DNA of 64,000 nt, from positions 1,426,001 through 1,490,000 of the forward strand of contig NZ_CP024870.1 of the NCBI RefSeq assembly GCF_002795265.1. Reading direction: 5' to 3'. A model generated the notes under the pieces. It saw nothing but the letters and a program-made list of their open reading frames with translations, was not told where the DNA came from and did not search any database. A program made the translations under genes and the position numbers. Within the stretch, counting starts at the first letter, position 1. Every line of letters begins with the position of its first letter. This document shows positions 1 through 7,686 of the stretch, one piece after another. The DNA is from Spiroplasma clarkii. Its GTDB lineage: Bacteria > Bacillota_I > Bacilli_A > Mycoplasmatales > Mycoplasmataceae.

Positions 1-154
1 TGAAAAAGTCTTCTCTGATTTATTAGAGCAAAAGCTAACTTGGGCTCAAATCATTAAAATCAACAACGAAGCTATCAGACAAAATATTTCACCTGGTGGT
101 TGTGCTGATATACTTGTTCTAATTTTGTTTTTAGATAACATTAATTATTCTTAA
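1..154 (+). CDS. citG: CitG C-terminus (triphosphoribosyl-dephospho-CoA synthase), partial
   Basis: Only the last 50 codons are in the window; the gene starts upstream. The end carries the motif NISPGGCADILVLILFL, which matches the conserved C-terminal NxSPGGSADLLALTxF block of CitG. CitG makes the triphosphoribosyl-dephospho-CoA precursor of the citrate lyase prosthetic group, which CitX then attaches to CitD. The TAA stop lies inside the convergent citC gene, so the two 3' ends overlap by 14 bp. It is the only cit gene here on the plus strand. The family call rests on a short fragment, but the motif and the neighbouring genes agree. Confidence 0.8.
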   Translation, partial: EKVFSDLLEQKLTWAQIIKINNEAIRQNISPGGCADILVLILFLDNINYS

Positions 155-1173
155 AGATTAATTCAGGATGAGCAATTGCTCTTTGATGATATTTTTGGTC
201 ACAAATTATTTTGTAGGTCTTGGTTGAAACTAAATTCTTCAAGCTTTCAAAATAATTTTCATAAATTAGCTTTCGAACCAATGAAGCACTGGTTGCTTTT
301 TTTGCTTCCGCTAATCTTGAAATTTGTTTTAACGCTAAACCATGTTCTTCTAAAACTTTATGTAAAGTTTCATTGTATAATTTTGTAGTTTCTGAAAAAG
401 GTTCATCACCAACATAGCGAGTGATGTTTTTTTTACCTTCTAGTAAATCACAAAATAAATTTGCATCTAAGTTTGATTGCTCTTTAATTGCTTGCAAGTT
501 AGACTGTAAAAAATAACTTGGGAAAAAGTTTTTAGAAATCAAGTACTCTGTACCTGGCAATAAAGTAACATTTTCAAATTCATTAATATTTGCCTTAATT
601 ATTTTGGTTCTTTCTGCATATGTAAAGAAAGAATTATCTTCTGCAACAGGAATTAAATAGACATGTTCATTTTCACTAGCTGCAGTTTTAATTAAGTAAA
701 GATGTCCCAAAGTTAAAGGATTTGCATTTAAAACTATAAAAGCAGTTTTGTCTTTATACTCTAAACTTTGGATCATTTTTTTTATAATCTAAGTAGGTTT
801 GGTTTTTTAATGCTAGAAAAACTATTACATCATTCTCATAAATTTTTTTAAAGTTTAAACTTGTAAAAATTTGTTTATTAATAAATTTTGTAATTACAAA
901 AGCATTATCATAACCATTTGTAAAAATTTCTTTTACCATCATTGTGATTAAGGAATTTGTTAAATTCATACCACTATATTCTTCACCAATGGCAATATTT
1001 TTAATTAAGTTATTTAACTTGCTGCAAACTCCCACAATTTCATTTTCAATGGTAGCAATAATTGTAGTGTCAACATCAGTATAATTTAAATCAAATTGAT
1101 TTAAAAAATCAGTTACTTGAATTTTTCTTTTTGCATTATTTAAATCCAGTTTTTCAAATTGAACTTGATCCAT
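141..1173 (-). CDS. citC: Citrate lyase ligase CitC, split by a frameshift in an A8 tract
   Basis: CitC ([citrate (pro-3S)-lyase] ligase) acetylates the CitD prosthetic group to activate citrate lyase. Two overlapping frames are seen: 1173 to 754 encodes a GNAT-like N-terminal domain of 139 aa, and 776 to 141 encodes the cytidylyltransferase-like domain, with NANPLTLGHLYLI as the nucleotide-binding motif. The frames meet at a run of eight A residues on the coding strand (plus-strand positions 776-783). Reading it as seven A residues joins them into one protein of 343 aa, the normal size for CitC. The cause could be sequencing error, pseudogenisation, phase variation or transcriptional slippage. 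The start ATG overlaps the citX-gntR stop codon (TAATG), so translation is probably coupled. Confidence 0.85.
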
Positions 1174-3849: not shown

Positions 3850-4751
3850 TATTCTGCACCTACCATTCCAAATTCTTTTGCAAGTTCAATGATCTCTAAT
3901 TGTTTTTCAACAACAGGTTTATCAACCATAGCTCCTTTAAATAAGAAAACTCCTTTGTTGTTTTTTAAACTTTCTTCAAAAGCTGCTTTCATTTCTAGAG
4001 CATAATCTAATTCTGCTGGAGTTGGTTGATAAATTTTATTAATCAAATTAATTTGATTTGGGTGAATTACTGATTTACCATTAAATCCTAACCCTTTGAT
4101 AAATTTAAATTCTTCATTAAAGCCTTCCACATCATTTGTGTTTGCATAAATAACATCAAACGCATCTATTTTTAAGGCTCTTGCTACATGTACCAAGTGT
4201 TGACGAGCATACAGTAACTCTTGACGATTTGGCAGTCTACTTCCTTTTAAATCAAGTAAATAATCCATACCTCCAAGGGCCACCCCAACAATGCGGGGAC
4301 TAGATTTTGCAATTTCATAAGCATTTAAAATTCCTAAAGCACTTTCAAAAGCTAAAAAGATTTTAGTTTCACAAGTACTATGGTACTTTGTTTCATATTT
4401 TTTTAGCAATTCAATTAGTGCTTCTACATCTGCCACAGTTTCTACTTTTGGCATACGAATCATGTTTACTCTAGCACTAACACTAGCTTCAATGTCTTTC
4501 TCAAAGAAGGGAGTGTCAATTCCATTAATTCGCACACAAGTTTCTATTTGACTTGCATTGTAATCAATATCTTTTAAAATTTCAACCAACAACATGCGAG
4601 CAGCATCTTTTTCTGAAAAAGCCACTGCATCCTCTAAATCAAACATAATAGTATCAGGTTTGTAAAAGACAGCATCTCGGTATAGAGCAGGTTTATCTGC
4701 AGGTAAAAATAACATGTGTTTTCTAGGTTTAGTTCGAGAAAAGTTAGTCAT
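3849..4751 (-). CDS. citE: Citrate lyase beta subunit (citryl-ACP lyase)
   Basis: The 300-aa HpcH/HpaI-type protein cleaves citryl-ACP to oxaloacetate and acetyl-ACP. It begins RKHMLFLPADKPALYRDA, with DTIMFDLEDAV (the metal-binding acidic motif), VRINGIDTPF, IFLAFESALGILNA (second acidic metal ligand) and IHPNQI near the C-terminus, all typical of CitE. It overlaps citD by 8 nt upstream and the citF start by 1 nt downstream, so translation is tightly coupled. Confidence 0.97.
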   Translation of the reverse strand: MTNFSRTKPRKHMLFLPADKPALYRDAVFYKPDTIMFDLEDAVAFSEKDAARMLLVEILKDIDYNASQIETCVRINGIDTPFFEKDIEASVSARVNMIRMPKVETVADVEALIELLKKYETKYHSTCETKIFLAFESALGILNAYEIAKSSPRIVGVALGGMDYLLDLKGSRLPNRQELLYARQHLVHVARALKIDAFDVIYANTNDVEGFNEEFKFIKGLGFNGKSVIHPNQINLINKIYQPTPAELDYALEMKAAFEESLKNNKGVFLFKGAMVDKPVVEKQLEIIELAKEFGMVGAE

Positions 4752-5019
4752 TTTTTGCTAAATATCTTTCTATACCAGTTTTTACCCTTGCTCTAATTAC
4801 TGCTGGAATAGCACCTTGGTCGTTTATTTCCACAAGCACACCATTCACTTTATAATCTTTTAAAATTCCTGCTACAATTGTTTTAATTTCTTCACCAAAT
4901 TGTTGAATAAATTTTGAATCAACAATAATTTCATTTTCTTGAGTGGTGGTTGGAGTAATAGTTACTAACATGTCTCCACTTTCAACACTACCCACAATTA
5001 TTTTCTTATCTTTTGTCAT
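4744..5019 (-). CDS. citD: Citrate lyase gamma subunit (acyl carrier protein)
   Basis: The 91-aa CitD carries the phosphoribosyl-dephospho-CoA arm. Ser14 in GSVESGDMLVTI is at the expected attachment position. The end GIERYLAKND is usual for the family. A strong ribosome-binding site (TTAGGAGG) lies inside the end of the transporter gene, and the start codon is 4 nt after the transporter stop. Confidence 0.96.
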   Translation of the reverse strand: MTKDKKIIVGSVESGDMLVTITPTTTQENEIIVDSKFIQQFGEEIKTIVAGILKDYKVNGVLVEINDQGAIPAVIRARVKTGIERYLAKND

Positions 5020-5023
5020 AATT

Positions 5024-7036
5024 TTATAAAACTCCTCCTAAATTTGTTACAATTTCATTACCTTCTGGTGGTCATTGAGCAAAAGCAATAGCTGCAAAGA
5101 TTAGAATCATACTTCCAGCAATTCTACAAGTGATTTGTCCAAATGGCATTAAGTTCATTCTTTCACTTGCCCCTAAAACAGCAATAGCTCCAGATCCACC
5201 TTGGGCTGTCATACAAAGTCCAGCAGAAACTGCACTTTCAACAGCATTAAATTTAAACATTTTTGCAAATAACATTGGTCCAACTGTGGCACCAAGTACA
5301 AACAAGAATGAAATAAATAATGCTTCAGGGTTTAGGGCTTTAATAAATTCATCTAGGTGAATGTAAATAATTCCAACCCCAACCATTAATAATCAAGTTG
5401 TTTGTTTTGAAATAAATTTGTTAATTTTTTCAGCACTTAACTTCATATCAGTTGGAATTACATTGAATAAATTTAATAATAAACAAATAATAATCATTCA
5501 AGCAAAGTTCGGTACTAAAATTTTAATTCTTTCTTCTGTAAAAATAGCCTTTTCAAATAGATCACTTAGCATATAAATCATCAAAATCATTAATAAGGCT
5601 GATGCAATAGTATGATCATTTGCTTTGGCACTACGATCAACTGTATGAATATCATGAAGCATTAATTTTCCATTTCCTGATAGAGAAGGTTTTGCTTTAC
5701 CAACACCATTGATTACTGCTGCAGCAATTACAGACATAATTGAAGCCAGAGTTGAAATGGCTAATGCTCTAGTTACTCACAGTTCATTGTCATAACCAAA
5801 TTTCTCAGCAATTTTACCAATTGGTTGGATTCCTCCACCATTTCCATCACATAAAATTGGTAATGCATAATATAAGATTAAGTTTTTAACTGACATACCA
5901 GTCATTAATGATCCAACCAATCCCAGAGCAACCCCTAAAAGTGTTCCAGCAAGGATTAGTACAAAAAACCCTCCTGTGGCTTTGATAATCATTTTTCTTG
6001 GTATCAGCAATACTGCACCAACTAGTAAAACTGAAATATATAAACTCAAGAAATCTTGGTTTTTAAATCAAGCTTCAACTGATGCATAAACATGGTGTCC
6101 AACATTTCATTCAACACCTGCCAATTTACCAGGGTTTGAAATAACCCCAAAGTAAACTAGAAATGCTCCAACAAACATTGAACCCATAACTGCTCCACCA
6201 AAATATTTTTTTCAAATTGGGATTTTACTAAAAATAACCCCTGAAATGATTGCAATTGTAAGTAAAATTGCAGGACCATAAATCATATTGGCCTCAACAA
6301 TTCCAGTTAAAATTGTTGCCACTAAAATTCCCACAAATGATAGATACATTCATAAGGGAATGGTTCAGATTTTTAAATTGACTCATTCTTTAAAAGATCA
6401 TTGGCTACATTGGTGAATTTTAATTTGAGTATTGCTTTTTCATAATTCTCATCTATTTTTTAAACTCAAACAGTAGTCTTCTCAACGTAATCCCATAGGT
6501 TTTCAAAGCATATCACCACTTGCAAACAACTCTTTTTGAGCTGTACGAACCTTTTCTTGTTTTTCTTTTCCTTTATATTGAGAGAAATCTGCTTCTTTTT
6601 CGAGATTCTTTCAACTTCTTTTGTAATTAATTTTTGATATTTTATAATCGATGGTTGTCAAATTTATACGGATATTATTTTCATGAGCACTGGCAAGACC
6701 ATCAATCAAATCTTGCTTAGCTAATGAAAGGTTTTTGAGAGCTACCTCAACTCCCTCATTTAAGTAAGCCTTTCTATTAATGAAATAATTTTTAACCTCT
6801 TCAATAACTTTTGGATCAGCATTATTTGCTGTTAATTTGGCAATTTTTGCCTGGTGTTTATTGTCAAGTTTTTCATTACTCTTTTCAAACTTAGCTTGAG
6901 TTTCTAGAATCTGTTTTTCTAGGATTTGGATTTGTTTTGCCTCATAGCGATCCAACTTTTCTTTACTTTTCTCAACCTTAAGTTGTTTGCGTTGCTTTTT
7001 ATCCTTAAAAAAACTAGTTTCTTCATTGGTTAGCAA
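5024..7036 (-). CDS. 2HCT-family citrate/malate transporter with long N-terminal coiled-coil extension
   Basis: The frame runs 670 aa with many TGA-encoded Trp residues. From about residue 223 onward it is a 2-hydroxycarboxylate transporter (CitS/CitP/MaeN type): many membrane segments, one re-entrant-loop motif CDGNGGGIQPIGKIAEKFG and a second, CMTAQGGSGAIAVLGASERM, ending in LMPFGQITCRIAG. These proteins are usually about 440 aa. Residues 1 to about 220 are an extra hydrophilic region, highly charged and Lys/Glu-rich, probably coiled coil over 1-140, followed by a Trp-rich linker. The start is uncertain: TTG at 7036 is the first possible start after an in-frame TAA, but GGAGGA lies about 16 nt away, so a non-ATG start closer to it (ATA at 7045) cannot be excluded. 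As the first operon gene it probably imports citrate for the lyase. Confidence 0.88.
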
Positions 7037-7110
7037 TGACTTTATTTTTTATTCCTCCATTCTGAAATTCTTATCAAGAATCTACATTATTGTTATACGC
7101 TATTTTTCTT

Positions 7111-7126
7111 AAATTGTATACAATTT
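7111..7126. promoter_or_regulatory. Operator-like palindrome, copy 1 (AAATTGTATACAATTT)
   Basis: A perfect 16-bp palindrome. The core TTGTATACAA fits operators of the FadR/FCD subfamily of GntR regulators (TNGTNNNACNA). It lies just upstream of the probable cit -10 box. The GntR domain fused to CitX in the same operon is the obvious candidate to bind it. Confidence 0.7.
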
Positions 7127-7141
7127 TTAAGGAGAAATTGA

Positions 7142-7157
7142 AAATTGTATACAATTT
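7142..7157. promoter_or_regulatory. Operator-like palindrome, copy 2 (AAATTGTATACAATTT)
   Basis: Identical to copy 1 over all 16 bp and centred 31 bp from it, about three helical turns, so two dimers could bind the same DNA face. I saw no other copy in the window. Confidence 0.7.
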
Positions 7158-7170
7158 CTTAAAGTTGACA

Positions 7171-7200
7171 TAAAAAAACACCTAATTTAATTAAGTGTTC
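7171..7200 (-). terminator. Intrinsic terminator of crr
   Basis: On the minus strand AACACTTAATT pairs with AATTAGGTGTT (one G-U pair) and is followed by seven T residues. It sits about 10 nt after the crr stop. Confidence 0.85.
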
Positions 7201-7209
7201 AATAAACTC

Positions 7210-7686
7210 TTACACAATTTTGGCAATAGCTTCTCCCTGTTTTACCTTACCTGTTTTTAGAATTTCAATTTTTTTACCGTTCATTGATTCACTAGTGAAA
7301 ACTAGTGGTGTTTGAATTGAAGGTACTTTTTTTGCAATTAAGTCTAGATCAACTTCTACAAGTAAATCTCCGGCCATAACTTTTTTATCTTGTTTGACTT
7401 TTACATCAAACCCTTCTCCATCAAGTGAAACTGTGTCCATTCCAATGTGTAGCAATGCTTCTACACCACTTTTATTCTTAATTCCATAGGCATGACCTGA
7501 TGGAAAGACTGTTACAAGTGTTCCATCCATAGGTGCATAGAACTTACCATTTGCTGGTATAAAAGCTAGACCCTCACCTAGCATTCCTTCAGCAAATACT
7601 TCATCTTCTACTTTGCTTAATTCAATAATCTCACCGTCAACAGGTGCCATTATTTCTAAAGCTTTGTCTTTTGTAAATAATCCCAT
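7210..7686 (-). CDS. crr: PTS glucose-specific EIIA (Crr-like)
   Basis: The 158-aa single-domain EIIA-Glc accepts phosphate from HPr and passes it to EIIB. The phosphorylated His is in EALLHIGMDTVSLDGEGF; the second active-site His is in FPSGHAYGI. The N-terminal APVDGEIIELSKVEDEVFAEG block is typical. It is monocistronic: TATAAT and a GTGGAGG ribosome-binding site lie upstream and a terminator follows. The membrane EIICB partner is ptsG at 41-43 kb. Confidence 0.95.
   Translation of the reverse strand: MGLFTKDKALEIMAPVDGEIIELSKVEDEVFAEGMLGEGLAFIPANGKFYAPMDGTLVTVFPSGHAYGIKNKSGVEALLHIGMDTVSLDGEGFDVKVKQDKKVMAGDLLVEVDLDLIAKKVPSIQTPLVFTSESMNGKKIEILKTGKVKQGEAIAKIV

What the first reader, a model, noticed from the sequence alone, without database searches (positions are those of the whole stretch)
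7111..7157. Two identical 16-bp palindromes, 31 bp apart, upstream of the cit operon
AAATTGTATACAATTT occurs twice with centres 31 bp apart, close to three helical turns, between the crr terminator and the first cit gene. The core TTGTATACAA fits FadR/FCD-type GntR operators, and the only GntR protein in the window is the CitX fusion. Enzyme-regulator, operators and operon thus form a self-contained circuit.
Basis: partly seen in the sequence, partly recalled or inferred. Interest (0 to 1): 0.75.

Follow-up and report, generated by a model that had tools for sequence, protein, structure and literature searches.

The report
Paired operator of citrate-operon enzyme-repressor
The two identical palindromes in front of this Spiroplasma-like bacterium's citrate-fermentation genes are almost certainly landing sites for a double-function protein made by the same operon, an enzyme that activates citrate lyase fused to a DNA-binding switch, so the operon appears to control itself.

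Summary
Observation confirmed. AAATTGTATACAATTT occurs at 7111-7126 and 7142-7157 and nowhere else in the 1.56-Mb genome, even as WTTGTATACAAW. The window uses genetic code 4. The operon (minus strand) is citS-citD-citE-citF-citX::gntR-citC.

A tandem TTGTATACAA pair occurs in 6 of 60 genomes of the family, each time directly before the first cit gene. Five of these carry the CitX-GntR fusion; the sixth carries citX and gntR as adjacent separate genes. Two more fusion-bearing operons have one site. The two cit operons whose CitX lacks GntR have none. Upstream neighbours, flanks and spacing (31, 13, 21, 19, 19, 14 bp) differ, so the 'three helical turns' point is not conserved; the site sequence is.

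The site fits the FadR-subfamily consensus with a 2-nt GT/AC gap. Recognition-helix contacts known from VanR are invariant. Sites overlap the predicted core promoter, so I favour autorepression by the fusion. No binding or expression was tested.

The site type is known. A CitX holo-ACP-synthase fused to a GntR repressor of its own operon was not found in the papers searched, nor outside this family in the genomes sampled: a new variant, formally BirA-like.

The parts
7142..7157 (-). Operator O1 (distal to citS), AAATTGTATACAATTT
   Evidence: exact palindrome; paired site conserved in relatives
7111..7126 (-). Operator O2 (proximal to citS), AAATTGTATACAATTT; overlaps the predicted -35 region
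7092..7120 (-). Best predicted cit promoter: TATACA (7120-7115, inside O2), 17-nt spacer, TATAAC (7097-7092); weak consensus match, not shown
   Evidence: the generic scan did not pick it
7177..7199 (-). crr terminator hairpin AACACTTAATTAAATTAGGTGTT followed by a T run
   Evidence: palindrome listing; the A+T-rich stem falls below the G+C threshold of the scan
7210..7686 (-). crr, glucose-type PTS EIIA; upstream neighbour, not part of the circuit
   Evidence: PF00358
5024..7036 (-). citS, 2-hydroxycarboxylate (citrate) transporter with an N-terminal extension of about 220 aa; first gene of the operon
   Evidence: PF03390; CitS-type
4744..5019 (-). citD, citrate lyase acyl-carrier protein (substrate of CitX)
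   Evidence: PF06857
3849..4751 (-). citE, citrate lyase beta subunit
   Evidence: PF03328
2302..3849 (-). citF, citrate lyase alpha subunit
   Evidence: PF04223
1173..2297 (-). citX::gntR fusion, 374 aa: CitX holo-ACP synthase (residues about 2-163) plus GntR wHTH (174-230) plus divergent FCD-like helical domain (237-373)
   Evidence: PF03802 and PF00392; six relatives aligned; model matches CitX 7dcm and FCD regulators 3sxy, 9isw, 6za3
141..1173 (-). citC, citrate lyase ligase, split into two overlapping frames (754-1173 and 141-776)
   Evidence: TIGR00124 and PF08218; single ORF in relatives

Best explanation
The two palindromes are operators for the CitX-GntR fusion encoded as the fifth gene of the operon they precede. 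A dimer of the GntR winged helix sits on each TTGT-AT-ACAA. With both sites filled, the fusion covers the core promoter of citS and represses transcription of the whole cit operon, itself included. When citrate fermentation is called for, DNA binding is released, either by a small effector in the FCD-like domain or by engagement of the CitX part with apo-CitD or its cofactor. Status of each step: the sites, their uniqueness, their conservation and their coupling to GntR are shown; GntR-site recognition is strongly inferred; repression is inferred from overlap with predicted promoters; the inducing signal is unknown.
For: (1) The sites are unique in the genome. (2) The tandem pair occurs in 6 of 60 family genomes, always immediately before the first cit gene, and in none of the 50 genomes without citF. 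(3) All 8 cit operons whose CitX is fused to or adjacent to GntR have one or two exact sites there; the two with CitX but no GntR (G021, G024) have none. (4) In G035 citX and gntR are separate adjacent genes with the same paired site before citC, although operon order and upstream genes differ. (5) Upstream neighbours, flanks and spacings differ, so the match is not leftover synteny. (6) The site has TKGT/ACMA boxes with a 2-nt gap, a recognised FadR-subfamily class (PMC4494728). (7) Residues matching VanR Ser44, Arg45, Thr46, Arg49 and Glu34 are invariant (contacts from PMC7797058). (8) In the operons with sites the proximal site overlaps or abuts the best plausible -35/-10, as VanR repressor sites do.
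Against: No binding or expression data exist. Promoters are predicted weakly: the generic scan found no more than shuffles do. The best studied cit-cluster GntR protein, CitO of Enterococcus faecalis, is an activator that binds O1 and O2 with citrate (PMC3198936). The window protein does not reach the Pfam FCD threshold. Variable spacing argues against a single fixed higher-order complex.
Confidence: 0.8

Rival explanations
1. Same operators and same protein, but the fusion is a CitO-like activator: citrate-bound protein on O1/O2 recruits RNA polymerase.
For: CitO of E. faecalis is a GntR-family activator with two sites in the cit intergenic region (PMC3198936); -35 hexamers here are poor, as in activator-dependent promoters.
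Against: Sites lie on or inside the predicted core promoter rather than upstream of -35, and in G031 the single site follows a TATAAT directly. None of 20 Bacilli cit loci inspected, two with a GntR gene nearby, contains TTGTATACAA.
Confidence: 0.15
2. The sites serve another regulator, such as the second GntR protein of the genome (TreR/HutC-like, near C1:1329167), and their link to CitX-GntR is incidental.
For: A second GntR-type protein exists.
Against: HutC-type sites have a 4-nt GT/AC gap; across 60 genomes the sites track the CitX-linked GntR and are absent without it; the pair exists nowhere else in any of those genomes.
Confidence: 0.03
3. The pair acts as RNA: the two self-complementary copies form a 17-bp hairpin in a cit leader (attenuator, processing site or part of the crr terminator).
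For: The strand folds at -14.8 kcal/mol, z -4.4.
Against: Any two copies of one palindrome must pair. Two operons have a single site and so no such hairpin; loop length varies; the core never shows compensatory change, as sequence readout predicts; no U run follows; crr has its own terminator.
Confidence: 0.03

Closest known systems
FadR-subfamily GntR operators with a 2-nt gap (GntR, MdcY, UxuR, PrpR, HypR group in PMC4494728)
   Same: A+T-rich palindrome with TKGT/ACMA boxes and 2 nt between GT and AC. From memory and not verified here, MdcY of Acinetobacter (malonate decarboxylase operon, whose ACP carries the same prosthetic group) and GntR of Bacillus subtilis were reported to bind this same TTGTATACAA core.
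   Different: The cognate protein here is fused to an enzyme; sites come as close tandem pairs of variable spacing.
Atu1419/VanR of Agrobacterium fabrum (FCD repressor, ATGTATACAT)
   Same: 10-bp palindrome with GTATAC centre, sites over -10 and between -10 and -35, autorepression; identical recognition-helix contact residues; the model matches its DNA complex 6za3.
   Different: VanR carries no enzyme domain and has a complete Asn/His3 zinc site; the window protein keeps two of the four ligands. VanR is a tetramer with sites about 190 bp apart.
CitO of Enterococcus faecalis
   Same: GntR-family regulator of a cit cluster with two operator sites.
   Different: Separate gene, divergent operons, activator; no TTGTATACAA in the Bacilli cit loci inspected.
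BirA (biotin ligase/repressor) and PutA, trigger enzymes
   Same: One protein that installs a prosthetic group on a carrier protein (BirA) or runs the pathway (PutA) and represses its own operon.
   Different: Unrelated folds; here the DNA-binding half is a GntR regulator at the C-terminus; catalytic control of DNA binding is untested.

Membership tests
FadR/FCD-subfamily GntR operator | Palindrome with TKGT...ACMA boxes and 2-3 nt between GT and AC | tested here: met
   TTGT-AT-ACAA, invariant in 14 sites; consensus from PMC4494728
FadR/FCD-subfamily GntR operator | Bound by a cognate FCD-type GntR protein | not testable with these tools
   needs EMSA or footprint; co-occurrence 8/8 vs 0/2
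GntR family regulator | GntR winged HTH above the Pfam cut-off | tested here: met
   PF00392, 50.1 bits vs cut-off 27
FCD subfamily regulator | FCD effector domain PF07729 detected by sequence | tested here: not met
   no PF07729 match in the window protein; fusion G020 and unfused G035 do pass (38.7 and 40.4 bits, cut-off 24.3)
FCD subfamily regulator | All-helical FCD fold after the wHTH | tested here: met
   AlphaFold model, pLDDT 77: helices 237-373; Foldseek to FCD protein TM0439 3sxy, E 1.4e-7, TM 0.81 by target length; profile match over residues 165-374
FCD subfamily regulator, metal-binding type | Asn/Asp plus three His metal ligands | tested here: not met
   window keeps Asn292 and His341 but has Tyr at the other two His positions; G005 keeps none; G020 and G035 keep three of four
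CitX holo-ACP synthase | Full-length CitX domain | tested here: met
   PF03802, 110.3 bits vs 25, positions 3-163 of 165; below the NCBIfam equivalog cut-off (90.8 vs 105.25)
CitO-type citrate regulator | GntR regulator linked to cit genes with two operators | tested here: met
CitO-type citrate regulator | Citrate-dependent activation | not testable with these tools
   promoter overlap suggests repression
BirA-like trigger enzyme | Enzyme activity or substrate engagement controls DNA binding | not testable with these tools
   domain architecture only

The most novel reading that the evidence does not exclude
CitX-GntR is a BirA-like sensor of its own product: while unmodified CitD engages the CitX half, the GntR half cannot hold the paired operator and the operon is on; once all CitD carries its cofactor, the free fusion dimerises on O1/O2 and shuts the operon. 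The weakening of the FCD metal pocket in the fused lineage would reflect transfer of sensing to the enzyme half.
Probability: 0.2. Interest if true: 0.8.

Novelty: new variant of a known kind. Interest (0 to 1): 0.6.

Why it matters
Mollicutes have few transcription factors and few defined regulons. This gives a complete, testable one: one regulator, one paired site and one operon in the genome. It also gives a natural case of an enzyme that installs a prosthetic group being fused to the likely repressor of its own pathway, with an unfused homologue (G035) and divergent fusions (G020, G031) for before-and-after comparison.

Tried and rejected
Helical phasing: rejected, since spacings are 31, 13, 21, 19, 19, 14 bp. 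Regulation of citG: no site upstream; best 12-mer match has 3 mismatches. RNA hairpin or second terminator: see rivals. Restriction-site reading (GTATAC) rejected because conservation extends to 12 bp and is tied to one locus. Pseudogene worry about the fusion in G003 and G005 (stops) was an artefact of an over-long start; the real ORFs are intact. The site string was not found in GntR papers of the library. A CitX-GntR fusion outside this family was not found in 392 phylum genomes, 30 class CitX loci or plasmids.

Full report
The window lies in a 1.56-Mb, single-contig Mollicutes genome (TGA = Trp). Read with code 4, the minus strand carries crr (7210-7686), then citS (5024-7036), citD, citE, citF, a citX::gntR fusion (1173-2297) and citC in two pieces. 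The fusion's listed ORF starts far upstream inside citF; relatives align from about residue 40, so the real start is probably ATG at 2297.

AAATTGTATACAATTT is at 7111-7126 and 7142-7157. In the whole genome it occurs only there, and so does the looser WTTGTATACAAW. Perfect 16-bp palindromes as such are common in this A+T-rich DNA (7 in the window, 2.75 expected), but an identical pair within 60 bp did not occur in 60 simulated windows.

Conservation. Of 60 genomes of the family, 10 have citF. Exact pairs TTGTATACAA-N(0-30)-TTGTATACAA occur in six genomes and only once in each. In every case the pair lies just before the first cit gene. Five of the six have the fusion; the four relatives are 44-60% identical to the window's. 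The sixth, G035, has separate adjacent citX and gntR genes and a different gene order, citC first, and its pair precedes citC. G031 and G020 have fusions at 43% and 32-35% identity and one exact site each, at citS. G021 has CitX with an unrelated tail and G024 has CitX alone; neither has a site. Pair versus CitX-linked GntR over 60 genomes gives Fisher p = 6e-7, and any site versus GntR among the ten cit operons gives p = 0.02. These p-values treat related genomes as independent and are only a guide. Upstream genes differ: crr here, unrelated genes elsewhere, with pyrG (by its sequence) in G020. Flanks and spacing differ too, so selection on the site is the simplest account.

The site. Across 14 sites the ten core bases never vary and the outer A/T pair is kept in 27 of 28 half-sites. 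TTGT-AT-ACAA has the TKGT/ACMA boxes of FadR-subfamily sites with the 2-nt gap of the GntR/MdcY/UxuR group; HutC-type sites have a 4-nt gap (PMC4494728). The only other GntR protein of the genome is TreR/HutC-like. From memory, MdcY of Acinetobacter and GntR of B. subtilis were reported to bind this same core; I could not verify this in the library.

The protein. Residues 2-163 are CitX and 174-230 a GntR winged helix. The model (pLDDT 77) shows a helical domain at 237-373 and matches FCD regulators and CitX 7dcm. VanR contacts its palindrome ATGTATACAT through Ser44, Arg45, Thr46, Arg49 and Glu34, with Arg45 reading the guanine (PMC7797058). The equivalents Ser205, Arg206, Thr207, Arg210 and Glu195 are invariant in all fusions and in G035. 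Of VanR's four zinc ligands (Asn137, His141, His192, His214) the window keeps two, G005 none, G031 two, and G020 and the unfused G035 three. The effector pocket thus looks weakened in most of the fused lineage. That is an observation; what it means for sensing is inference.

Mechanism. In the operons with sites, the proximal site overlaps or abuts the best plausible -35/-10: -35 inside the site in the window, G003, G005 and G035, site within the spacer in G009 and one reading of G004, site straight after TATAAT in G031; G020 is unclear. These are weak predictions, but the arrangement is that of a repressor, and VanR's sites are placed likewise. Because the fusion is the fifth gene of the operon, this would be negative autoregulation. 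CitO of E. faecalis, the known cit-cluster GntR protein, is an activator (PMC3198936), so activation remains a rival at about 15%. Twenty Bacilli cit loci, two with a GntR gene nearby, showed no TTGTATACAA, so this operator is not a general feature of cit clusters.

The 31-bp, three-turn spacing is not conserved. citG is convergent, mostly outside the window (C1:1425390-1426136), and has no site, so the circuit does not include it. No binding or expression has been measured.

Novelty. The operator type and each protein domain are known. A CitX-GntR fusion was found only in this family, and the papers on Mollicutes citrate genes that I could read do not mention it. I rate it a new variant of a known kind, comparable in logic to BirA.

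Noticed in passing
window 754-783: citC is split by a frame change at a run of eight A (776-783); relatives have one continuous ORF. Could be a real mutation, a sequencing indel or a slippage site.
   Followed up: partly
window 7036-7058: citS has no ATG: the codon aligned with the ATG of relatives is ATA (7045-7043), 8 nt after GGAGG (7058-7054); the next start-like codon is TTG at 7036.
   Followed up: partly
window 6360-7036; also L047, L048, L050: CitS carries an N-terminal charged, probably coiled-coil extension of about 220 aa before the 2HCT domain, conserved in relatives and longer in G020, G021 and G024.
   Followed up: no
L048:11312-12196: CitX of G021 has a C-terminal tail of about 100 aa without a Pfam GntR match, at the place where the fusion partner sits in others.
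   Followed up: no
L168:14949-16450 and L169:6558-8061: In two other Bacilli a separate GntR gene is directly followed by a citG-like gene rather than fused to citX; no TTGTATACAA in either region.
   Followed up: partly
L018:4144-4833 (G000 C1, about 1329143-1329832): Orphan TreR/HutC-like GntR protein, the only other GntR gene of the genome, beside a transposase-like ORF.
   Followed up: partly
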